From a virus, in the IMG/VR virus record IMGVR_UViG_3300031857_000718, positions 1 to 34,023 of that record: a DNA stretch of 34,023 bases. The stretch is one strand, 5' to 3'. Both the position numbers and the translations under genes were made by a program. Shown here piece by piece: positions 1 through 19,552 of the stretch (position 1 is its first letter; the number at the start of each line of letters is the position of its first letter). The notes beneath the pieces were generated by a model. That model ran no database searches. It saw only the letters and a program-made list of their open reading frames with translations, and had not been told where the DNA came from.

Positions 1-51
1 CAGGGGAACACTTGTTCTATTTGGGCTGTAACAATCCGCCCGCAGCGGGCA
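1..51 (+). other. End of an upstream unit with a short GC hairpin
   Basis: No complete gene is visible here. All three forward frames are open from the edge and stop within about 70 bases, so this may be the tail of a preceding small gene. A hairpin with arms GCCCG (38-42) and CGGGC (46-50) lies just before the first TGATAG element. It sits where the other units have a terminator, but it has no T tract. It is probably a weak terminator or the remnant of one. Confidence 0.35.
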
Positions 52-104
52 TGATAGTAAATAAATGATAGTTCCTTTATGATAGCGATTGTTACAATGT
101 TAAC
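52..104 (+). repeat. TGATAG element, unit 1
   Basis: First of five near-identical intergenic elements. It carries three TGATAG copies starting at 52, 66 and 80, then the small palindrome ATTGTTACAAT and GTTAAC. It lies between the preceding unit and the promoter region. An extra T makes the second spacing 14 rather than the 13 seen in the other units. Confidence 0.85.
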
Positions 105-108
105 GATG

Positions 109-163
109 GTTAAGAAACCTTACACTGGTCAGATGTTCCAGATTAACAATGACCTGCTACCTT
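109..163 (+). promoter_or_regulatory. Operator-like palindrome and early promoter, unit 1
   Basis: GTTAAGAAACCTTACA (109-124) is a degenerate copy of the 16-bp palindrome seen perfectly in unit 4. By alignment to units 2-4, where the -10 box ends 7 bases before a conserved GTCRGGA, the -10 is TACCTT (158-163) and transcription would start near G170. The -35 position (GTTCCA, 135-140) is poor, so this may be the weakest or an activator-dependent promoter of the set. Confidence 0.5.
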
Positions 164-177
164 TAGGGAGTCAGGAT

Positions 178-195
178 CTTCCGCCCTAGCGGAGG
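178..195 (+). promoter_or_regulatory. 5' UTR hairpin with CCTA loop, unit 1
   Basis: A 7-bp stem (178-184 with 189-195, one G-T wobble) closes a CCTA loop at 185-188. It is preceded by GTCAGGA (170-176), the predicted mRNA start, and followed by CGAAGACA (197-204). The same arrangement occurs in units 2, 3 and 4 with different stem sequences but the same loop. Confidence 0.75.
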
Positions 196-221
196 ACGAA
201 GACAAAGCAAAGGGGGAGAAC

Positions 222-617
222 ATGGATCAGGATCAGGCTAAGAACATGGCGGCAGTCGCCACGGACGCAGCGTCAGCAGTTGCCGCACGAGCAGTTGCTC
301 GGGCGCCGAAGTTCCAGAAGTTTGTTACAACGGTTCTAGACAATGCCAAGGATTGGACAAGCGGCGACCGTTGGCACATCAGCGACGGCGAAACCGACAT
401 CAGCGCCGAAGAGATTCGGACGCTCCTAGGCGGGGATCTTTGGGACAAGGTTGAGGAGGAGGTCAAGGAGGCACTTACTGAGGAGATTCGGGACGAGGTC
501 AGGGACGAGATTGAAGAGGAGATTCGGGACGAGGTCAGGGACGAGATCAGGGACGAGATTGTGCGAGAGGTTCAGGTCAGGGTTAGCGACATGGTCAACG
601 ACCTCAACGACTTGTAA
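222..617 (+). CDS. Early protein with charged helical repeats
   Basis: Unknown 131-residue acidic protein. The start at 222 follows an AGGGGGAG ribosome-binding site at about 211-218. The N-terminal 40 residues are Ala-rich and probably helical. The C-terminal third, from about residue 76, is a run of four-residue units of the type EIRD/EVRD, predicting a long charged amphipathic helix that could form a coiled coil. The DNA behind it contains 36-base tandem repeats. It is a single-gene cassette between a promoter-hairpin unit and a terminator. I recognise no enzymatic motif; a scaffold, adaptor or binding role for the helix is only a guess. Confidence 0.8.
   Translation: MDQDQAKNMAAVATDAASAVAARAVARAPKFQKFVTTVLDNAKDWTSGDRWHISDGETDISAEEIRTLLGGDLWDKVEEEVKEALTEEIRDEVRDEIEEEIRDEVRDEIRDEIVREVQVRVSDMVNDLNDL
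480..547 (+). repeat. 36-base tandem repeat inside the first gene
   Basis: The 32 bases from 480 recur exactly at 516-547, a period of 36 bases or 12 codons. A further partial unit follows. The frame is kept, so the repeats lengthen the charged helix of the encoded protein in whole turns. Confidence 0.9.
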
Positions 618-623
618 CAATCA

Positions 624-667
624 GGGGGAGGGGCGCCACGGGGCGCTCCTCCTCCTAAATTTTTTTG
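624..667 (+). terminator. Intrinsic terminator of the first cassette
   Basis: An 11-bp GC-rich stem (627-637 with 642-652, one G-T pair), extendable to about 14 bp, with loop ACGG. It is followed by a T-rich tract (661-666) that runs into the next TGATAG element. Confidence 0.9.
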
Positions 668-720
668 TGATAGTCAATAAATGATAGTTCCTTATGATAG
701 CGGATTGTTACATTGTTAAC
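668..720 (+). repeat. TGATAG element, unit 2
   Basis: Second copy of the intergenic element: three TGATAG motifs, then GATTGTTACATTGTTAAC. It abuts the T tract of the preceding terminator directly. Confidence 0.85.
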
Positions 721-724
721 GGCG

Positions 725-780
725 GTTAAGGATTCTTAATGGTTCTGGTAGTTGATTGTTAATGGTGGATCTGCTATGGT
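725..780 (+). promoter_or_regulatory. Operator-like palindrome and early promoter, unit 2
   Basis: GTTAAGGATTCTTAAT (725-740) matches the palindrome. The promoter has -35 TTGATT (752-757), exactly 17 bases, and -10 TATGGT (775-780). Predicted transcription start is G787 of GTCAGGA. Confidence 0.75.
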
Positions 781-796
781 TCAAGGGTCAGGACGG

Positions 797-812
797 CTCC
801 GCCCTAGCGGAG
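797..812 (+). promoter_or_regulatory. 5' UTR hairpin with CCTA loop, unit 2
   Basis: A 6-bp stem (797-802 with 807-812, CTCCGC/GCGGAG) around CCTA (803-806). GCGAAGACAG follows at 815-824, then a GGAGG ribosome-binding site at 831. Confidence 0.85.
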
Positions 813-839
813 ACGCGAAGACAGGACGAAGGAGGAAAC

Positions 840-1187
840 ATGAACAACGGGGTTCGGGTCAATCAGCAACAGGCGGTGGACATGATCGCCAAGGGCGTGG
901 ACTTTTACGCTTCGGCGCTTCATGGGTACAGCGTCTCGCGTGGTGGCAATACTGGCGCAGGGATCGCGTACGGCGTGGCGCTTGATCGGTTCAAGGAGGA
1001 CGATGAGCGCATTCGTTATGTGGTTAAGTCATACGCAACACCGATTGCGTGGAGGCTTGAAGACGGGACATGGGTGGTTCCAGCGGCGAAGTACAGCCGA
1101 ACAACAAGCAAGCATCAGGGGGTGGTCAATCGTGGGGTTGGTCAGGCGACAGCGAACGGGGGGATGGTGATCCGTCCCCTACGCTAG
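840..1187 (+). CDS. DUF8033-like small phage protein
   Basis: Predicted 115 residues from ATG 840, chosen because GGAGG lies 5 bases upstream and because an earlier in-frame start at 756 would fall inside the promoter and hairpin. Residues around 61-95 read Y..K.YxTPIAWR, WVVPAAKYS and TSKHQG, a pattern I recall from small phage and plasmid proteins annotated as DUF8033. Function is unknown. It is the only gene of cassette 2 and ends 10 bases before a strong terminator. The family name is from memory and should be treated as tentative. Confidence 0.8.
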   Translation: MNNGVRVNQQQAVDMIAKGVDFYASALHGYSVSRGGNTGAGIAYGVALDRFKEDDERIRYVVKSYATPIAWRLEDGTWVVPAAKYSRTTSKHQGVVNRGVGQATANGGMVIRPLR

Positions 1188-1197
1188 GGGCAGGAGA

Positions 1198-1227
1198 GGG
1201 GGGTGCCGCAAGGCATCCCCCTTTTTT
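1198..1227 (+). terminator. Intrinsic terminator with GCAA loop
   Basis: A 10-bp stem (1198-1207 with 1212-1221, one G-T pair) closed by a GCAA tetraloop of the GNRA class, then six T (1222-1227). Confidence 0.95.
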
Positions 1228-1240
1228 GTTGCGCAAAAAA

Positions 1241-1287
1241 TGATAGTAAATAAATGATAGTTCCTTATGATAGCGATTGTAACAATT
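1241..1287 (+). repeat. TGATAG element, unit 3
   Basis: Third copy: TGATAG at 1241, 1255 and 1268, then GATTGTAACAATT. The following GTTAAC is lost and the region diverges into GCGAAACCTTAAC. Confidence 0.85.
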
Positions 1288-1311
1288 GCGAAACCTTAAC
1301 ATTGTTAGGGG

Positions 1312-1340
1312 TTGATTCTTAACGTTGTCTGTGGTATTGT
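1312..1340 (+). promoter_or_regulatory. Early promoter, unit 3
   Basis: -35 TTGATT (1312-1317), exactly 17 bases, -10 TATTGT (1335-1340) with a preceding TGTGG. Predicted start is G1347 of GTCGGGA. Only the right half of the palindrome (CCTTAAC, near 1294-1300) remains upstream. Confidence 0.75.
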
Positions 1341-1355
1341 TCAATTGTCGGGACG

Positions 1356-1371
1356 GCTCCCCCTAGGGAGC
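1356..1371 (+). promoter_or_regulatory. 5' UTR hairpin with CCTA loop, unit 3
   Basis: A 6-bp stem GCTCCC/GGGAGC (1356-1361 with 1366-1371) around CCTA (1362-1365), followed by GCGAAGACAG at 1373-1382. Stem bases differ from unit 2 while pairing is kept. Confidence 0.85.
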
Positions 1372-1398
1372 AGCGAAGACAGGATACAGGAGGGTACC

Positions 1399-1686
1399 AT
1401 GGGGTACAATTATGCGGCAGGCGTCGCGGAGATGACTGGGGACTTGCGTACGGCGGTGTCGGTACACTTGACGTACAATTGCTACCCAGCAATGACGGAG
1501 TTCACGGATGCGGGCGTTGAAGCGATCCGCGCCGTGCTTGATGAGGATGAGGATCATCTCGTGCCTATGCCGAATGGTGTATCGCATAAGGTGTATGGCG
1601 ATCAGGTTCCCGCGGGTAAGTTGATCGGCATGCTTCACCTTGATGCAATTGTGGATTGGGCGTATTATGATCAGGAGGTGCAATAA
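1399..1686 (+). CDS. Small early protein, unknown
   Basis: Predicted 95 residues from ATG 1399, preceded by an AGGAGG ribosome-binding site at about 1388-1393. The reading frame opens further upstream, but an earlier start would translate the hairpin and promoter. The protein is neutral to acidic, without membrane segments or cysteine clusters; the segment around residues 40-62 (LDEDEDHL) is acidic. No family recognised. Its stop overlaps the next start by one base (TAATG), so the two genes are probably translated together and may work together, for instance with this protein soluble and its partner in the membrane. Confidence 0.8.
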   Translation: MGYNYAAGVAEMTGDLRTAVSVHLTYNCYPAMTEFTDAGVEAIRAVLDEDEDHLVPMPNGVSHKVYGDQVPAGKLIGMLHLDAIVDWAYYDQEVQ

Positions 1687-1895
1687 TGAGCGAGAAGGTG
1701 TTCGGGGTTCTATTCGTAGGGTTCTCGGCAATCTGTGGGGTTCTGGTAGGTTGGGAGTTCGGATCGGTAAGTTCAGGGATCGCAATGTTCTTTATAACGT
1801 CAGGGATCTCGTTGTACGGGATCTGGGGCTTTGAATTGGTCAGGAGTTCAATCGCGGATCATTATCGCAGGAAGTACGACGACAGCCGCCGCTAG
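1686..1895 (+). CDS. Small membrane protein, two helices
   Basis: Predicted 69 residues. Two hydrophobic stretches, about residues 5-22 and 28-48, are each long enough to span a membrane. They are followed by a positively charged tail ending RRKYDDSRR, which by the positive-inside rule would lie in the cytoplasm. It is coupled to the preceding gene by TAATG and followed by a strong terminator. Function unknown. A holin-like or superinfection-exclusion role is possible for such a gene in an early cassette, but nothing in the sequence proves it. Confidence 0.75.
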   Translation: MSEKVFGVLFVGFSAICGVLVGWEFGSVSSGIAMFFITSGISLYGIWGFELVRSSIADHYRRKYDDSRR

Positions 1896-1909
1896 GGAGG
1901 TGGCTTTAC

Positions 1910-1945
1910 GAGGGGGGCGGCAGGGTGCCGCTCCCCTCACTTTTT
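1910..1945 (+). terminator. Intrinsic terminator, third cassette
   Basis: A 13-bp stem (1910-1922 with 1926-1938, one G-T pair) with a GGG loop and a T run at 1941-1945; a second T run follows at 1954-1957. Confidence 0.92.
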
Positions 1946-1958
1946 GGAAAAAATTTTG

Positions 1959-2012
1959 TGATAGTAAATAAATGATAGTTCCTTATGATAGTCCGATTGT
2001 TACAATGTTAAC
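1959..2012 (+). repeat. TGATAG element, unit 4
   Basis: Fourth copy: three TGATAG motifs, GATTGTTACAATGTTAAC complete. It is followed directly by the best-preserved palindrome. Confidence 0.85.
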
Positions 2013-2016
2013 GGCG

Positions 2017-2061
2017 GTTAAGAAATCTTAACTTGACATTTGAGCGGTTTTGTGGTATGCG
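2017..2061 (+). promoter_or_regulatory. Palindromic operator and upstream promoter, unit 4a
   Basis: GTTAAGAAATCTTAAC (2017-2032) has perfect 7-base arms around AA and abuts the -35 TTGACA (2033-2038). The spacer is 17 bases and the -10 is TATGCG (2056-2061). A protein bound to the palindrome would touch the -35 box, so repression is the simplest reading. Confidence 0.7.
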
Positions 2062-2065
2062 GTTG

Positions 2066-2121
2066 GTTAAGAAATCTTAACCAAAATAGGGGTTGATTCT
2101 TAATGTGGGGTGTGGTATTGT
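2066..2121 (+). promoter_or_regulatory. Second palindromic operator and promoter, unit 4b
   Basis: An identical 16-base palindrome (2066-2081) starts 49 bases after the first. It is followed by -35 TTGATT (2093-2098), 17 bases, and -10 TATTGT (2116-2121). Predicted start is G2128 of GTCGGGA. Unit 4 thus has tandem promoters, probably from a local duplication. Confidence 0.8.
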
Positions 2122-2138
2122 TCTTGTGTCGGGATCGG

Positions 2139-2152
2139 TACACCCTAGTGTA
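2139..2152 (+). promoter_or_regulatory. 5' UTR hairpin with CCTA loop, unit 4
   Basis: A 5-bp stem TACAC/GTGTA (2139-2143 with 2148-2152) around CCTA (2144-2147), then GCGAAGACAG at 2156-2165. This stem shares almost no bases with units 1-3, yet it pairs fully. Confidence 0.85.
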
Positions 2153-2180
2153 GCGGCGAAGACAGATCAAGGAGGGCACG

Positions 2181-2648
2181 ATGCCACTTAATTGGAACGT
2201 CGCAAACGTCAAGGATAAGGAAAACGTATGCTTCTTTGTAGCAACAAAGGACAACGCGGACTACGGCTTCAGGGCTGGCGAGTCGTACCTAAAAGGTGAA
2301 ACAGATGCGCTCATCTGGCTCACAATGTCGGTCGGTCTTGATCAGATCACCGAAGACAACATTGATGAGTGGCTATACAGACTAGCAATTGAGTACGCGT
2401 TTCAGGATTCAACAATCAGCCGTTGCGTTAATGGAGAGTGGGAGCGAGTCTACCATGACGAAACCTCACTTCGCAGGCACATCGGTCTATACACAAACGC
2501 GGGGACGATCTCCCGCAAGGAGTACCATGAGAAGATTCTCCGAATCCTGCACAACAACGGGTCGCGCATCATAAGGGACTTTGAGGAATACAATAAGGAC
2601 TTTGAGCAGAAGCACAAGATGACGGACAAGGGCTGGGTCAAGATCTAG
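2181..2648 (+). CDS. Early protein, unknown, 155 residues
   Basis: ATG 2181 follows AAGGAGGG at about 2169-2176. The protein is mixed and soluble. An N-terminal part to about residue 40 looks like short beta strands. A middle part (about 43-75, DALIWLTMSVG and ITEDNIDEWLYRLAIEYA) and a C-terminal part rich in charged helix follow. The middle block resembles conserved small phage proteins of unknown function, but I cannot name a family. It is the only gene of cassette 4, under two tandem promoters, so it may be the most strongly or most tightly controlled of the set. Confidence 0.82.
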   Translation: MPLNWNVANVKDKENVCFFVATKDNADYGFRAGESYLKGETDALIWLTMSVGLDQITEDNIDEWLYRLAIEYAFQDSTISRCVNGEWERVYHDETSLRRHIGLYTNAGTISRKEYHEKILRILHNNGSRIIRDFEEYNKDFEQKHKMTDKGWVKI

Positions 2649-2662
2649 GGATCTTGCTCACA

Positions 2663-2695
2663 GGGGGGCGGCAGGCGCCGCCCCCCTTTCTTTTT
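2663..2695 (+). terminator. Intrinsic terminator, fourth cassette
   Basis: A 10-bp stem of G and C only (2663-2672 with 2677-2686), loop AGGC, then TTTCTTTTT (2687-2695). Confidence 0.95.
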
Positions 2696-2710
2696 GCCCG
2701 CAAAAATTTG

Positions 2711-2757
2711 TGATAGTAAATAAATGATAGTTCCTTATGATAGCGAATTGTTACATT
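2711..2757 (+). repeat. TGATAG element, unit 5
   Basis: Fifth copy: three TGATAG motifs then GAATTGTTACATT. The GTTAAC end is replaced by TTTTG before the palindrome. Confidence 0.85.
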
Positions 2758-2760
2758 TTG

Positions 2761-2805
2761 GTTAAGGAATCTTATCTTGACATTGGCGTTCGGATCTGGT
2801 ACCGT
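2761..2805 (+). promoter_or_regulatory. Operator-like palindrome and promoter of the DnaB operon, unit 5
   Basis: GTTAAGGAATCTTATC (2761-2776) abuts -35 TTGACA (2777-2782). The spacer is 17 bases and the -10 is TACCGT (2800-2805). The geometry is the same as unit 4a. The start would be near 2812. No terminator is evident until after 6748, so this promoter probably drives the eleven-gene operon ending past DnaB. Confidence 0.75.
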
Positions 2806-2814
2806 GCTTGTAGA

Positions 2815-2833
2815 TCGGAAGAAGATCTTCCGA
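2815..2833 (+). promoter_or_regulatory. Divergent 5' UTR hairpin, unit 5
   Basis: A 7-bp stem TCGGAAG/CTTCCGA (2815-2821 with 2827-2833) with loop AAGAT. Position relative to the promoter and to the ribosome-binding site (AGGAGGG, 2838-2844) matches units 1-4, but the CCTA loop and the GCGAAGACAG box are absent. It either has a different ligand or serves only as an mRNA end cap. Confidence 0.7.
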
Positions 2834-2848
2834 CAACAGGAGGGCATC

Positions 2849-3088
2849 ATGGATCTACTCACAGCGTTAAAGGCGGACGAGAATCTTGCCGAGGGGCTTG
2901 GCGAAGTGTATTGGGGAGAGTATAATGGTAAAGAGATGACGGCGGCTGAGCGGCTGTCGTACGCAACCGACGAAACCGATGCGCGGCTTGTTGTCGGGAC
3001 GGCGTACAAGATTGCGGCGGCGTCAGGGGACTACGCCATTGCGGATCTGATTGTGGATTCGTTCAAGAGTGTCAAGGAGGGTGTGTGA
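2849..3088 (+). CDS. Small early protein, first of the DnaB operon
   Basis: Predicted 79 residues from ATG 2849, chosen for the AGGAGGG site 5 bases upstream; the frame is open earlier, but that would start inside the promoter. The protein is Ala-rich, mostly helical and acidic, with no recognised motif. It overlaps the following gene by four bases (GTGTGA context, GTG 3085 inside the stop). Confidence 0.78.
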   Translation: MDLLTALKADENLAEGLGEVYWGEYNGKEMTAAERLSYATDETDARLVVGTAYKIAAASGDYAIADLIVDSFKSVKEGV

Positions 3089-3495
3089 AGATTACAGGGA
3101 TCAGGCTCACAAACGAGGACGCGGCAGACATCGTACACGGCGCCGTTGAGGGCGGCACGAATTACTGGGCGGAGGTCAAGGACTACAAGTGGTCAACGTG
3201 GTACAAGGATCCAGAAAGTACATTGAGCAGCATTCGGGAGGACTTGCCAGAGGACTTTGTATTCGTTAACATTCGGGAGGACGCGGAGCAACTGGATCTT
3301 GACGAGGAGCCGAAGTGGGTCGGGCTAACCAAGGAGAATCTTGAGAGGGGGGTCATTGGGTTGATTGAGAAGTACCCGCACCTTATCCATGGCGTGTCAA
3401 ACAGGGGTGAGGGGGACGTGGAGTTTGACTTTGACGCAACGTCGTGCGACGTCATCGTACAGTTGGCAGTATTCGGGGAGGTTGTTTATGGTTGA
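3085..3495 (+). CDS. Conserved small phage protein with EGGxxYW motif
   Basis: Predicted 136 residues from GTG 3085 with AGGAGG just upstream. The N-terminus has an alpha-helical segment ending EGGTNYW (residues 22-28). The C-terminus ends in a hydrophobic block AVFGEVVYG. I recall this pairing, EGGxxYW early and a FGEVxYG end, from small proteins of unknown function in many phages, but no role is known to me. The overlap with its neighbours argues that it is translated with the DnaB operon. Confidence 0.8.
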   Translation: MKITGIRLTNEDAADIVHGAVEGGTNYWAEVKDYKWSTWYKDPESTLSSIREDLPEDFVFVNIREDAEQLDLDEEPKWVGLTKENLERGVIGLIEKYPHLIHGVSNRGEGDVEFDFDATSCDVIVQLAVFGEVVYG

Positions 3496-3664
3496 CGAGA
3501 AGCAGGAGAAACTGTGGCTCGCTATTCGTGAGATGGATCTGGTAGTGTATGATCTGATTCGGGCAGCAGAGGACGCAGGCGAAGAGGATCTGGCACAAGC
3601 AGCGCGGCGGTTGATGATCATCGCCGTGTCAAAGATTGGAGTGAAAGGAGTGAATCGTGGATAG
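3488..3664 (+). CDS. Small helical protein
   Basis: Predicted 58 residues from ATG 3488, overlapping the previous gene by 8 bases; GGGGAGG lies at about 3476-3482. The sequence is nearly all helix, acidic in the middle and basic at the end. No family recognised. A frame extending upstream to 3365 only shadows the preceding gene. Confidence 0.72.
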   Translation: MVDEKQEKLWLAIREMDLVVYDLIRAAEDAGEEDLAQAARRLMIIAVSKIGVKGVNRG

Positions 3665-3818
3665 GCAGCGAGAGATCTTTGAAACGTACCTTTATCGGTA
3701 CCTGAAGGAAGAGAAGCGAAGGGAGCAGAGGGCGCAGTTTTGGTGGAAGGTTACGGTAGCGTTCCTATTCTTGTCGTTGTTCCTATTGGGATTTAGCGCA
3801 GGGAGGTTGTCGGTATGA
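3657..3818 (+). CDS. Small single-pass membrane protein
   Basis: Predicted 53 residues from GTG 3657, with AAGGAG 6 bases upstream. The first 30 residues are highly charged (KEEKRREQR). A hydrophobic segment, about residues 32-48 (VTVAFLFLSLFLLGF), is a good membrane span. It overlaps the previous gene by 8 bases and the next by ATGA, filling what would otherwise be a 150-base gap in a tightly packed operon. The charge pattern predicts the N-terminus inside the cell. Function unknown. Confidence 0.75.
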   Translation: MDRQREIFETYLYRYLKEEKRREQRAQFWWKVTVAFLFLSLFLLGFSAGRLSV

Positions 3819-4162
3819 GTGCAAGCGCAGAGGTCTTTATTTCGGTTGACATTACAAATAGCAAGGGGAATAGCACATATCCAGACATCGTGGCGAAGTG
3901 GTTGAGTCAGGCGGGGTTCCCGATGGAGGGCAGCGGCTACTACTACCACTCCAATTCGTCTGGGGATCTGTATGAAGTTCGTGGTTTGTCAGTAGACTAC
4001 GAAGTCTTTGATCAGGAGTGGAGTTCAGGTCTGGTCACGGAGTTAAACTTCCTTGACAGGGATCTCATCGTGGACGTCCGCGTCTACAATCTAGATCGTG
4101 AACCAGACGTGGAGTACAATAGTAGGGACATTCCAGACGACTACTGGGAGGAGGAAGGTTGA
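3815..4162 (+). CDS. Early protein, unknown, 115 residues
   Basis: ATG 3815 overlaps the preceding stop (ATGA) and has GGGAGG about 9 bases upstream. The protein is acidic and Tyr-rich, with alternating hydrophobic residues that suggest a beta-rich fold; the last 20 residues are strongly acidic (DDYWEEEG). No family recognised. It directly precedes and is coupled to the secreted RlpA-like gene. Confidence 0.75.
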   Translation: MSASAEVFISVDITNSKGNSTYPDIVAKWLSQAGFPMEGSGYYYHSNSSGDLYEVRGLSVDYEVFDQEWSSGLVTELNFLDRDLIVDVRVYNLDREPDVEYNSRDIPDDYWEEEG

Positions 4163-4551
4163 TCGCGGCGATCCTCGCAGTCGCCATGGTGACGACGCCA
4201 ACGTACACGGATCGTATGACGTGGTACGCGGCTCGCTGCCCAGCGGGTGTGACGTCGCTCGGGCGAACGGACACGTGTTCTCCATATCTGAAGAAGCCTC
4301 ATGGTCGTGGCGGAGAAACAAAGTGGTATGCCGCCTCTGGGTGGTTTAGGTGGAAGATGAAACCCGTCGCCGTAATCGTGACGAGCAAGACGACAGGTCG
4401 CTCGGTACGGCTAATCGTCAGGGACTATTGTGACGCATGTGCGAAAGGGCGTGCTATACTGGACATCAGTCCGTGGGGCTTCATCGCCCTCGGTCATGAA
4501 TTAGGGAAGGGCGTGGACAAAGTGTGGATTAGGTATGAGGGGGCACGATGA
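4159..4551 (+). CDS. RlpA-like double-psi beta-barrel protein, probably exported
   Basis: Predicted 130 residues from TTG 4159 inside the previous stop (TTGA), with GGAGGAAGG immediately upstream. Residues 1-13 are hydrophobic and could be a short export signal. The rest fits the RlpA/expansin-type double-psi barrel: MTWYAARC near residue 20, VIVTSKTTGRSVRLIVRDYC at about 72-91, and ILDISPWGFIALG near 99. The conserved Asp in VRDYC and the DIS-W-F-L pattern match the family. Known family members bind or act on cell-wall glycans. Four to five cysteines suggest disulfides outside the cytoplasm. It is odd to find it in the early operon rather than with the lysis genes. Confidence 0.75.
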   Translation: MIAAILAVAMVTTPTYTDRMTWYAARCPAGVTSLGRTDTCSPYLKKPHGRGGETKWYAASGWFRWKMKPVAVIVTSKTTGRSVRLIVRDYCDACAKGRAILDISPWGFIALGHELGKGVDKVWIRYEGAR

Positions 4552-4994
4552 AGATTAACTATGGTCAACTGGCGTTGGAGCGGCGCTTCGGGGAGGAGAA
4601 GCGGGCAGCCATCGCCAAGGCTCGTGAACTGGGGCATGACCCCAACTGGGTATATGACGATACCGTGGAGGGTGCTCTCTGGTGTGACGATTGCGGACTT
4701 TGGGGCAGGGTGGTAATATCACCTATGTCCAGCAGAGAGCGTAAGGACGACATCGGAGGGGCGATACTGGAGAACAGGTGCGAGCAGGATGCCGTCCACA
4801 AGGTGCACGGCGAAGAGGCTCGCAAGATTGTAGACCTTGGGATGGACTCGTCCATGCCGAGCATGTTCGCGGACATCGGCATTGAGCCGAAGGAGGTAGA
4901 CCGTGAGAACTTCCAGAGCAGGGTACTCAAAGCGTGGAGGAAGAACGACAGGATCGGCTCGTTCAACGGGCGCACCGTTGGGGGACGGGAGTGA
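4548..4994 (+). CDS. Early protein with a possible zinc site
   Basis: Predicted 148 residues from ATG 4548, overlapping the previous gene by four bases (ATGA). C46 and C49 (WCDDC), with C78 and H84, could bind one zinc ion. The N-terminal 30 residues are a charged helix and the C-terminus is basic. No family recognised. It lies between the RlpA-like gene and a second zinc-ribbon gene. Confidence 0.78.
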   Translation: MKINYGQLALERRFGEEKRAAIAKARELGHDPNWVYDDTVEGALWCDDCGLWGRVVISPMSSRERKDDIGGAILENRCEQDAVHKVHGEEARKIVDLGMDSSMPSMFADIGIEPKEVDRENFQSRVLKAWRKNDRIGSFNGRTVGGRE

Positions 4995-5160
4995 GCGGCA
5001 CTGGCGGCTCTACCACCCGCGGTACTCGGTTGAGCCGTGCCCGAGGTGCGAGCACCCCGAGGCGGACGGCGGGTACTGCAATCCAGAGGACGGGGGGTGC
5101 GGGTGGACAATGGCGCACCATAAGAGGGAGCAGTGGATCAATGGGGATCTCGGAAAATAA
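4978..5160 (+). CDS. Small zinc-ribbon protein
   Basis: Predicted 60 residues if started at TTG 4978, the last usable start before the conserved-looking part; the frame is open back to about 4903. It has CPRC (residues 21-24) and YC/GGCGW (33-43), so four cysteines form a plausible zinc ribbon, and Trp/Tyr residues fit a small folded domain. A second frame over the same bases (from GTG 4991) gives a Gly/Thr/Arg-rich product and looks like a shadow. The start is uncertain. Confidence 0.6.
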   Translation: MGDGSERHWRLYHPRYSVEPCPRCEHPEADGGYCNPEDGGCGWTMAHHKREQWINGDLGK

Positions 5161-5227
5161 TTGGGAGAAGATCGTGGGCGTGACACTCGTCGTGCTGTAC
5201 ATGATCTTCTTGATGGGAGGCGTATGA
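5141..5227 (+). CDS. 28-residue membrane microprotein upstream of DnaB
   Basis: ATG 5141 to TGA 5227. After MGISENNWEK the remaining residues (IVGVTLVVLYMIFLMGGV) form one membrane span. A GGGAG site lies about 10 bases upstream. Its stop overlaps the DnaB start (ATGA), so its translation would couple to that of DnaB. It may be a real membrane peptide or a leader that sets DnaB translation; the sequence does not decide. Confidence 0.5.
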   Translation: MGISENNWEKIVGVTLVVLYMIFLMGGV

Positions 5228-6540
5228 GCAGGACAACACCCGTATCAAACGAGGCTGAACGTAGCGTACTGGGTGCCATGCTGATTGATCCAGACGTAGC
5301 AGGGATCGCCTGTGAGCGCCTGAACGATGACGATTTCTACTCCATTGATAACCGAGCCGTGTTCTCGGCAATCAAGTCGGTAGTGAATCGCGGCGGCACA
5401 CCAGACATCGTATCGGTCATGGACTCGCTCAAGGGCGCAGCCAGTGATAGTGGCGACGGCTGGGGGGTAACGCTGTCCGATCTCTCCCGCGAGGTTCCGA
5501 CGTCGGTCAACGCGGAGGAGTACATCGGCATCGTGCAGCGCAAGGCGGTCATGCGGGCGATTATCAGCGGCGCCCACAAGATTGCGGAGATCGGGTACGC
5601 CGACTCCAACGAGGTGGATCGGGCGATTGACGAGGTTGAGTCCATCGTCTACAACCTGAACCGTAAGCGCAAGGTTGAGAACGCAGTCCTGCTGGACAGG
5701 CTGATTCCAGAGACAATGGATCGGATTAGGTACATGCTGGAGCACAAGGGCGAGCGGCTCGGCATCCCGTCTGGGCTGGCGAGCATTGATCGCATCACTG
5801 GCGGCTGGCAGAAGTCTGACCTGATTATCGTCGCCGCCCGCCCGTCGGTCGGCAAGACGTCTCTGGCGCTGAACATGGCGCAGCATGCGGCGTTGAATCA
5901 GGGGAAGAGCGTCGCTGTGTTCTCGCTGGAGATGAGCAGGGAGCAACTCTCTACGAGGCTCGTTGCTGGCGTGTCAGGCATTGACATCGGACGCATCCGA
6001 CGTGGTGACATCAAGGGGATCGATCTTGCAAGGATCGCCGCCTCTGCTGGCACCTTGCTGGACGCAAAGATCGTCATTGACGATACGCCTGTGGCTTCTC
6101 CAGCGGAGTTGCGCGGTCGCTCACGGCGGATTGAGTCCGAGCACGGGCTTGATCTCATCGTGGTGGACTACCTTCAGTTGATGACGGCAGACCGTGCGAC
6201 CAAGGACGCCAACAGGGTGTCTGAGACGTCGGACATCAGCCGCGGGCTGAAGCGTCTGGCTCGTGAGATGAACGTTCCCGTGATCGCGCTCTCGCAGTTG
6301 AGTCGCTCGTCGGAGCACCGCGAGGGCGGGCAGCCACGCCTTTCAGACCTTCGGGACTCTGGGGCGATTGAGCAGGATGCCGACGTGGTGCTGATGCTGT
6401 GGCGTCAGAACCCGCCAGACATCGCCAACGAGTACGAGGAAGTCAAGGCAATTGTGGCAAAGCATCGGAATGGTCCGACAGGTATGGTTGACCTTCTCTT
6501 CAAGAAGGCGACGACAACATTCATTGATAAGGAGGGATGA
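5224..6540 (+). CDS. dnaB: Replicative DNA helicase DnaB
   Basis: Predicted 438 residues from ATG 5224 with GGGAGG 4 bases upstream; a longer frame from 5161 would overrun the preceding gene. This is the full family length. An N-terminal primase-interaction domain covers about 1-150, and a RecA-like ATPase domain follows. Walker A is RPSVGKTS (206-213), the catalytic Glu is E236 in SLEMS, Walker B ends at D315 (VVDYLQL), the SQLSR sensor Gln is at 358, the DNA-contact segment is DLRDSGAIEQDAD (375-387), and the arginine finger is KHRNGPTG (413-420). It unwinds the fork as a ring hexamer at the phage replication origin. No loader, primase or polymerase is in this window. Confidence 0.97.
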   Translation: MSRTTPVSNEAERSVLGAMLIDPDVAGIACERLNDDDFYSIDNRAVFSAIKSVVNRGGTPDIVSVMDSLKGAASDSGDGWGVTLSDLSREVPTSVNAEEYIGIVQRKAVMRAIISGAHKIAEIGYADSNEVDRAIDEVESIVYNLNRKRKVENAVLLDRLIPETMDRIRYMLEHKGERLGIPSGLASIDRITGGWQKSDLIIVAARPSVGKTSLALNMAQHAALNQGKSVAVFSLEMSREQLSTRLVAGVSGIDIGRIRRGDIKGIDLARIAASAGTLLDAKIVIDDTPVASPAELRGRSRRIESEHGLDLIVVDYLQLMTADRATKDANRVSETSDISRGLKRLAREMNVPVIALSQLSRSSEHREGGQPRLSDLRDSGAIEQDADVVLMLWRQNPPDIANEYEEVKAIVAKHRNGPTGMVDLLFKKATTTFIDKEG

Positions 6541-19471: not shown

Positions 19472-19510
19472 TATCTTCCCCCTAGTATTTTGGCATACTT
19501 AGCCACAAAT

Positions 19511-19539
19511 ATCATAGGGGGTTTTCCCCCCGATGTCAA
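19511..19539 (-). promoter_or_regulatory. Leftward promoter between capsid and glycosyltransferase genes
   Basis: -35 TTGACA (19539 to 19534), 17 bases, -10 TATGAT (19516 to 19511). The expected start near 19504 leaves a leader of about 33 bases before ATG 19471. The -35 box lies in the 3' arm and loop of the hairpin at 19527-19552. Confidence 0.75.
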
Positions 19540-19552
19540 GCGACATCGGGGG
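19527..19552 (-). terminator. Hairpin after the capsid gene, terminator or attenuator
   Basis: Reading leftward, an 11-bp stem CCCCCGATGTC/GACATCGGGGG with loop GCTT begins about 20 bases after the capsid stop. No T tract follows. The G run can also pair with a C run at 19517-19521 around loop GAAAA, so two exclusive hairpins are possible. It could trim capsid mRNA, terminate in part, or regulate the tail genes. Confidence 0.6.

What the first reader, a model, noticed from the sequence alone, without database searches (positions are those of the whole stretch)
178..2152. Covarying CCTA-loop hairpin at the 5' end of early mRNAs
In units 1-4 a hairpin with loop CCTA always closed by C-G sits about 8-11 bases after the predicted start. 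Stems are CTTCCGC, CTCCGC, GCTCCC and TACAC with matching partners; many positions changed in pairs. It is flanked by GTCRGGA before and CGAAGACA after. Compensatory change with a fixed loop argues for selection on RNA structure: an RNA-binding protein site, an mRNA cap against decay, or a translation switch.
Basis: seen in the sequence. Interest (0 to 1): 0.8.

Follow-up and report, generated by a model that had tools for sequence, protein, structure and literature searches.

The report
Sealed 5' ends on phage mRNAs
Each early message of this uncultured phage begins with a small folded RNA that ties up its very first nucleotides, a shape kept by paired mutations across related phages and most likely there to slow destruction of the message from its front end.

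Summary
The hairpin is real, and larger than first described. In all four units the leader reads GUC-RGGA-stem-CCUA-stem-CGAA-GAC (window 170-203, 787-822, 1347-1380, 2128-2163). The GUC lies 7 nt after the -10 hexamer, at the predicted +1, and pairs with the downstream GAC, so the message's first nucleotides are sealed in a helix. Twelve distinct copies were found in the window and in related IMG/VR phages. Stems differ but keep pairing: covariation score 0.417, against at most 0.078 for slid controls. In two distant relatives with the same stem, the outermost pair changes from G-C to A-U on both sides. The invariant part is the internal loop (GGA and CGA in 12/12), not the CCTA loop, which becomes AAA, GAA or CCAGA elsewhere. 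More widely in this phage family, promoters followed by a Shine-Dalgarno site tend to have hairpins starting at +1 to +3. Best explanation: a 5'-end-sealing mRNA stabiliser, as in T7 gene 10 and ompA. This function is inferred, not shown. Why the internal loop is invariant is open; a protein or RNA-polymerase contact is the main rival. Antitermination like HK022 put, a translation switch and a DNA operator fit less well. Rfam has no match.

The parts
170..203 (+). Leader element 1: GUC-AGGA-UCUUCCGC-CCUA-GCGGAGGA-CGAA-GAC; outer helix 170-172/201-203, internal loop 173-176/197-200, stem 177-184/189-196, loop 185-188
   Evidence: sequence, fold, verified decomposition
787..822 (+). Leader element 2: GUC-AGGA-CGGCUCCGC-CCUA-GCGGAGACG-CGAA-GAC
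   Evidence: found as held-out copy by model R1, E 1.5e-8
1347..1380 (+). Leader element 3: GUC-GGGA-CGGCUCCC-CCUA-GGGAGCAG-CGAA-GAC
2128..2163 (+). Leader element 4: GUC-GGGA-UCGGUACAC-CCUA-GUGUAGCGG-CGAA-GAC
   Evidence: held-out copy, E 6.6e-9
2815..2833 (+). Unit 5 leader: unrelated hairpin UCGGAAGA-AGA-UCUUCCGA starting at about +4
   Evidence: (z -3.1)
158..163 (+). -10 hexamer TACCTT of unit 1, weak -35; +1 predicted at 170
752..780 (+). Promoter of unit 2: TTGATT-17-TATGGT, +1 predicted at 787
1312..1340 (+). Promoter of unit 3: TTGATT-17-TATTGT, +1 predicted at 1347
2093..2121 (+). Promoter of unit 4: TTGATT-17-TATTGT, +1 predicted at 2128
210..617 (+). Shine-Dalgarno (+41) and gene 1 (222-617, acidic, coiled-coil-like repeats, 131 aa)
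830..1187 (+). Shine-Dalgarno (+44) and gene 2 (840-1187)
1388..1895 (+). Shine-Dalgarno (+42) and genes 3 and 4 (1399-1686, 1686-1895)
2170..2648 (+). Shine-Dalgarno (+43) and gene 5 (2181-2648)
627..667 (+). G+C-rich inverted repeat and T run after gene 1, terminator-like; similar ones at about 1196-1228, 1900-1946 and 2660-2697
   Evidence: read directly from the sequence; not run through a terminator scan

Best explanation
The early mRNAs of this phage start with a 34-36-nt folded RNA whose outermost base pair is formed by the first transcribed nucleotide (GUC at +1 to +3 with GAC). A purine-rich internal loop (RGGA/CGAA) joins this short helix to a sequence-variable 8-9-position stem with a tetraloop; a 4-9-nt linker and the Shine-Dalgarno follow. 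Most likely it works by sealing the 5' end. With no unpaired 5' nucleotides the triphosphate is a poor substrate for RppH-type pyrophosphohydrolases and for ribonucleases that enter from the 5' end, so these short messages, mostly of one or two genes and closed by terminator-like hairpins, stay longer in the cell. Shown (computationally): the structure, its covariation, its fixed position relative to the -10 box, and the same tendency in other leaders of the family. Inferred: that +1 is where predicted, that the effect is on stability, and that the internal loop makes the two helices one stacked rod. Unknown: the host and its decay enzymes.
For: Position: the outer helix begins 7 nt after the -10 in 12 of 12 copies; 10 of 12 have the form TANNNT there, the exceptions being TACAAA and TCTAAT. 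Covariation: nine aligned copies score 0.417 against 0.003-0.078 for slid controls, 94.7% of cells paired; arm-swap test. Outermost pair G-C in 9 copies and A-U in 3, including two relatives (L110, L162) that share one stem but differ GUC/GAC versus AUC/GAU. Generality: in 18 non-redundant SD-promoters of the family, hairpin energy peaks at start positions +1 to +3 (-5.1 to -6.7 kcal/mol, elsewhere mostly 0 to -3). Thirty-three SD-promoters have mean MFE of the first 30 nt -9.8 against -5.4 shuffled; 62 promoter-like sites without SD show -5.2 against -4.3. A homologous early gene in two other relatives (L015, L144; 58-70% aa identity) has a leader starting at +1 with the same 7-bp outer helix, 2-nt bulge and inner hairpin but mostly different letters. 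Literature: 5' stem-loops protect T7 gene 10 and ompA mRNA (PMC2254391); B. subtilis RppH needs at least two unpaired 5' nucleotides (PMC3997798).
Against: A generic protective hairpin would not need an invariant internal loop (GGA and CGA in 12/12). Outer helix pairing at +1 is only 0.2-0.6 in some models (copies in L003, L012 and L162), because energy rules score the internal loop as unfavourable. Shine-Dalgarno accessibility is mixed (0.21-0.87). No transcription start or half-life has been measured. The host is unknown. Three of the 18 promoters (window - 19504, L177, L156) have their strongest local hairpin at -15, -9 or +26 rather than at the start. The 18 promoters include copies of the element itself.
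Confidence: 0.55

Rival explanations
1. The RGGA/CGAA internal loop is the recognition site of an RNA-binding protein (phage or host) that co-regulates translation or stability of the early mRNAs; the stems only present it.
For: GGA and CGA are invariant in 12/12 copies while stem positions differ at 39-52% of pairwise comparisons. The core recurs before unrelated genes in distant relatives.
Against: No window gene is restricted to element-bearing relatives (truncated contigs limit this test). Other leaders of the family have 5' hairpins without this loop.
Confidence: 0.22
2. A nascent-RNA element acting on RNA polymerase (HK022 put-like antitermination or anti-pausing) just after promoter escape.
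For: It sits at the very start of early transcripts, as putL lies just downstream of PL (PMC9378689), with a conserved core.
Against: put is about 70 nt with two stem-loops; here there is one 34-37-nt element. The CCTA-type units end in their own terminator-like hairpins and each next unit has its own promoter, so readthrough is not needed.
Confidence: 0.08
3. Translation switch: the hairpin or its loop alternates with a structure that hides the Shine-Dalgarno.
For: The loop CCU could pair with AGG of the Shine-Dalgarno; leader length is constant (51-56 nt).
Against: The loop is AAA, GAA or CCAGA in other copies; the element ends 4-9 nt before the Shine-Dalgarno; no conserved alternative partner was found.
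Confidence: 0.06
4. A DNA feature (operator or initially transcribed sequence) conserved for transcription, the pairing being a by-product of an inverted repeat, with copies alike because they are recent duplicates.
For: Units share about 50-nt upstream repeats, so duplication has occurred; the element abuts the promoter.
Against: Spacing between the conserved flanks varies from 20 to 23 bp; the flanks are not symmetric beyond GTC/GAC; the arms vary while keeping pairing, including G-U pairs; the outer pair covaries in distant relatives.
Confidence: 0.06

Closest known systems
T7 gene 10 (phi10) leader 5' stem-loop
   Same: Phage mRNA with a stem-loop at its 5' end ahead of a strong Shine-Dalgarno, reported to stabilise the mRNA (PMC2254391, citing Mertens 1996)
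   Different: T7 hairpin is a single 8-bp stem made by phage polymerase; here host-type promoters, a 3-bp terminal helix plus invariant internal loop, and several different copies per genome
E. coli ompA / papA and B. subtilis aprE 5' stem-loops
   Same: 5'-terminal pairing as an mRNA stabiliser (cited in PMC3997798)
   Different: Single cellular genes; no shared internal-loop core over a set of genes
HK022 put RNA
   Same: Structured RNA at the start of phage early transcripts
   Different: Two stem-loops, about 70 nt, antiterminator acting on RNA polymerase (PMC9378689)

Membership tests
5'-terminal stabilising stem-loops (ompA / T7 g10 kind) | Hairpin starts at the transcript's first nucleotides | tested here: met
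   7 nt from -10 in 12/12 copies; start predicted from sequence only, not mapped
5'-terminal stabilising stem-loops (ompA / T7 g10 kind) | Structure kept, sequence of stem free | tested here: met
5'-terminal stabilising stem-loops (ompA / T7 g10 kind) | Shine-Dalgarno left outside and accessible | tested here: inconclusive
   outside the element in all copies; P(unpaired) 0.21-0.87
5'-terminal stabilising stem-loops (ompA / T7 g10 kind) | Lengthens mRNA half-life | not testable with these tools
   needs decay measurements
HK022 put RNA | Two stem-loops in about 70 nt | tested here: not met
   one 34-37-nt element, then Shine-Dalgarno at +41 to +45
Any Rfam family | Covariance-model match | tested here: not met
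   no match at gathering score nor up to E 5 for 1-3000
Coat-protein-type translational operator hairpins (e.g. MS2) | Hairpin overlaps Shine-Dalgarno or start codon | tested here: not met
   element ends 4-9 nt before the Shine-Dalgarno; the feature itself is from own knowledge

The most novel reading that the evidence does not exclude
The GUC-RGGA...CGAA-GAC core is an unrecognised class of cis-acting phage leader RNA: a 5'-terminal module whose invariant internal loop is read by a specific protein or by RNA polymerase and which marks the early mRNAs of an uncultured phage family.
Probability: 0.3. Interest if true: 0.72.

Novelty: new variant of a known kind. Interest (0 to 1): 0.5.

Why it matters
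If true, a family of phages with no detectable match among the sequenced phage isolates searched here writes 5'-end protection into several early genes, with a ready-made series of natural compensatory variants. That makes a testable set for how bacterial decay enzymes read 5' ends and whether phages evade 5'-end-dependent decay, and it gives compact portable leaders for stable expression in laboratory bacteria.

Tried and rejected
Nucleotide similarity of window 1-6000 and a terminase protein search in the phage-isolate collection: no match. Rfam at gathering and relaxed thresholds: none. Collection-wide patterns for the core: apart from family members, the more than 90 other matches inspected lacked a -10 box at the right distance and were taken as chance. 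Major-capsid search in cellular genomes to find a host: only 30-32% relatives in Clostridia/Oscillospiraceae MAGs, host not settled. Co-occurrence search for a partner gene: none specific to element-bearing phages. Pairing of the CCUA loop with the Shine-Dalgarno: rejected, the loop is not conserved. Weak model hits G011, G019, G023, G087 and others were not followed up as real copies. A three-sheared-G.A reading of the internal loop was considered from memory (Turner-lab work on 5'-GGA/3'-AAG loops); the register does not fit exactly and the AUC class has CGAU, so it is left open. No metagenome scan was allowed, so R-scape-scale sampling was not possible.

Full report
WHAT WAS CHECKED. The window is an IMG/VR virus record of 34 kb with no match in the phage-isolate collection (window 1-6000; terminase protein). 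It has a DnaB-like helicase, capsid, portal and terminase genes. The left 2.7 kb holds four transcription units (genes 222-617, 840-1187, 1399-1895, 2181-2648), each with its own promoter, a leader of 52-53 nt, one or two genes and a terminator-like hairpin.

ANATOMY. The structure is bigger than described. From the predicted start each leader reads GUC-RGGA-[8-9-nt arm]-CCUA-[arm]-CGAA-GAC. GUC pairs with GAC, RGGA faces CGAA as a 4x4 internal loop, and the arms pair with at most one mismatch in the window. The first base lies 7 nt after the -10 hexamer in 12 of 12 copies from five phages; 10 of 12 have the form TANNNT there, the exceptions being TACAAA and TCTAAT. The Shine-Dalgarno follows at +41 to +45.

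RELATIVES. A pattern scan found a sister phage (L003, IMGVR_UViG_3300032331_001930) with the same gene order in most of the early region; most shared proteins are 60-95% identical, some small early ones 35-55%. It has four CCUA copies and a fifth, AUC-GGGA-UCGUUGCAC-AAA-GUGUAGCGG-CGAU-GAU. L012/L013 carry one of the fifth type with loop GAA. A model from five copies (R1) found three held-out copies at E 1.6e-7 to 6.6e-9 and a distant one in L110 (record G047, capsid 78-81% identical), E 0.001. Promoter scanning found its twin in L162 (record G039). These two share the whole stem (UCAACUGCA-CCAGA-UGCAGGGGG) but one has GUC...CGAAGAC and the other AUC...CGAUGAU: the outermost pair has changed on both sides. 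The genes behind them are unrelated to each other and to gene 1 of the window. Two whole-collection scans for the core gave more than 90 other matches, none with a -10 box in place.

COVARIATION. On nine aligned copies the structure scores 0.417 for covariation (shuffles 0.161, slid controls at most 0.078) with 94.7% of cells paired; 15 cells have changes on both sides. Exchanging 3' arms between copies lowers pairing from 88% to 64% (none of 20,000 permutations as good). Copies are related, so shuffle p-values are not strict probabilities; the slid controls and the orthologue comparisons carry more weight. The invariant letters are in the internal loop (GGA and CGA, 12/12); stem positions differ in 39-52% of pairwise comparisons.

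THE WIDER PATTERN. Sixty stretches from related contigs were fetched. Among 33 non-redundant consensus promoters followed by a Shine-Dalgarno site, the first 30 nt fold to -9.8 kcal/mol on average, shuffles -5.4; 62 promoter-like sites without one give -5.2 against -4.3. Scored by start position on a stricter set of 18, hairpins cluster at +1 to +3. Some are plain (A-GGCGGGG-ACAA-UCCCCGCC). A homologous early gene in L015 and L144 has leaders whose predicted folds show the same 7-bp helix from +1, 2-nt bulge and inner hairpin, with largely different letters. So the shared property is a closed 5' end; the RGGA/CGAA core is one version of it.

MECHANISM. Free 5' nucleotides are needed by known 5'-end enzymes: B. 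subtilis RppH needs at least two (PMC3997798), and 5' stem-loops are described as protecting ompA and T7 gene 10 mRNA (PMC2254391). Here the outer helix leaves none unpaired. I therefore favour end sealing (0.55). The step from structure to stability is inference. What it does not explain is the invariant internal loop and why the A-U class always has CGAU; this keeps a protein- or polymerase-contact reading alive. The co-occurrence test found no partner gene, but many contigs are truncated in the early region.

VERDICT. Real, selected RNA structure at the 5' end; a new variant of a known kind of element. Function, start sites and host remain to be measured.

Noticed in passing
window 53-98, 669-714, 1241-1287, 1959-2005, 2711-2757: Upstream of every early promoter lies a near-identical AT-rich block with three TGATAG repeats 13-14 bp apart (TGATAGTAAATAAATGATAGTTCCTTATGATAG), also in L003 and L012; looks like an operator or activator site.
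   Followed up: no
window 2016-2031, 2065-2082 and similar: Inverted repeats GGTTAAGAAATCTTAACC around the -35 regions of the early promoters; unit 4 seems to have two promoters in tandem.
   Followed up: no
window about 19510-19551, minus strand: The promoter before the glycosyltransferase gene has its -35 TTGACA inside an inverted repeat CCCCGATGTCGCTTGACATCGGGG kept letter for letter in L144, L175 and L177.
   Followed up: no
L162:419 versus L110:245; L003:2978; L012:162: Three positions change together (G/A at +1, A/U at the last internal-loop base, C/U at the closing base); the A-class creates a second possible pairing AUCG/CGAU.
   Followed up: partly
L006:8001-8321: A 110-kb virus record encodes a 30% identical relative of gene 2181-2648 without the leader element.
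   Followed up: no
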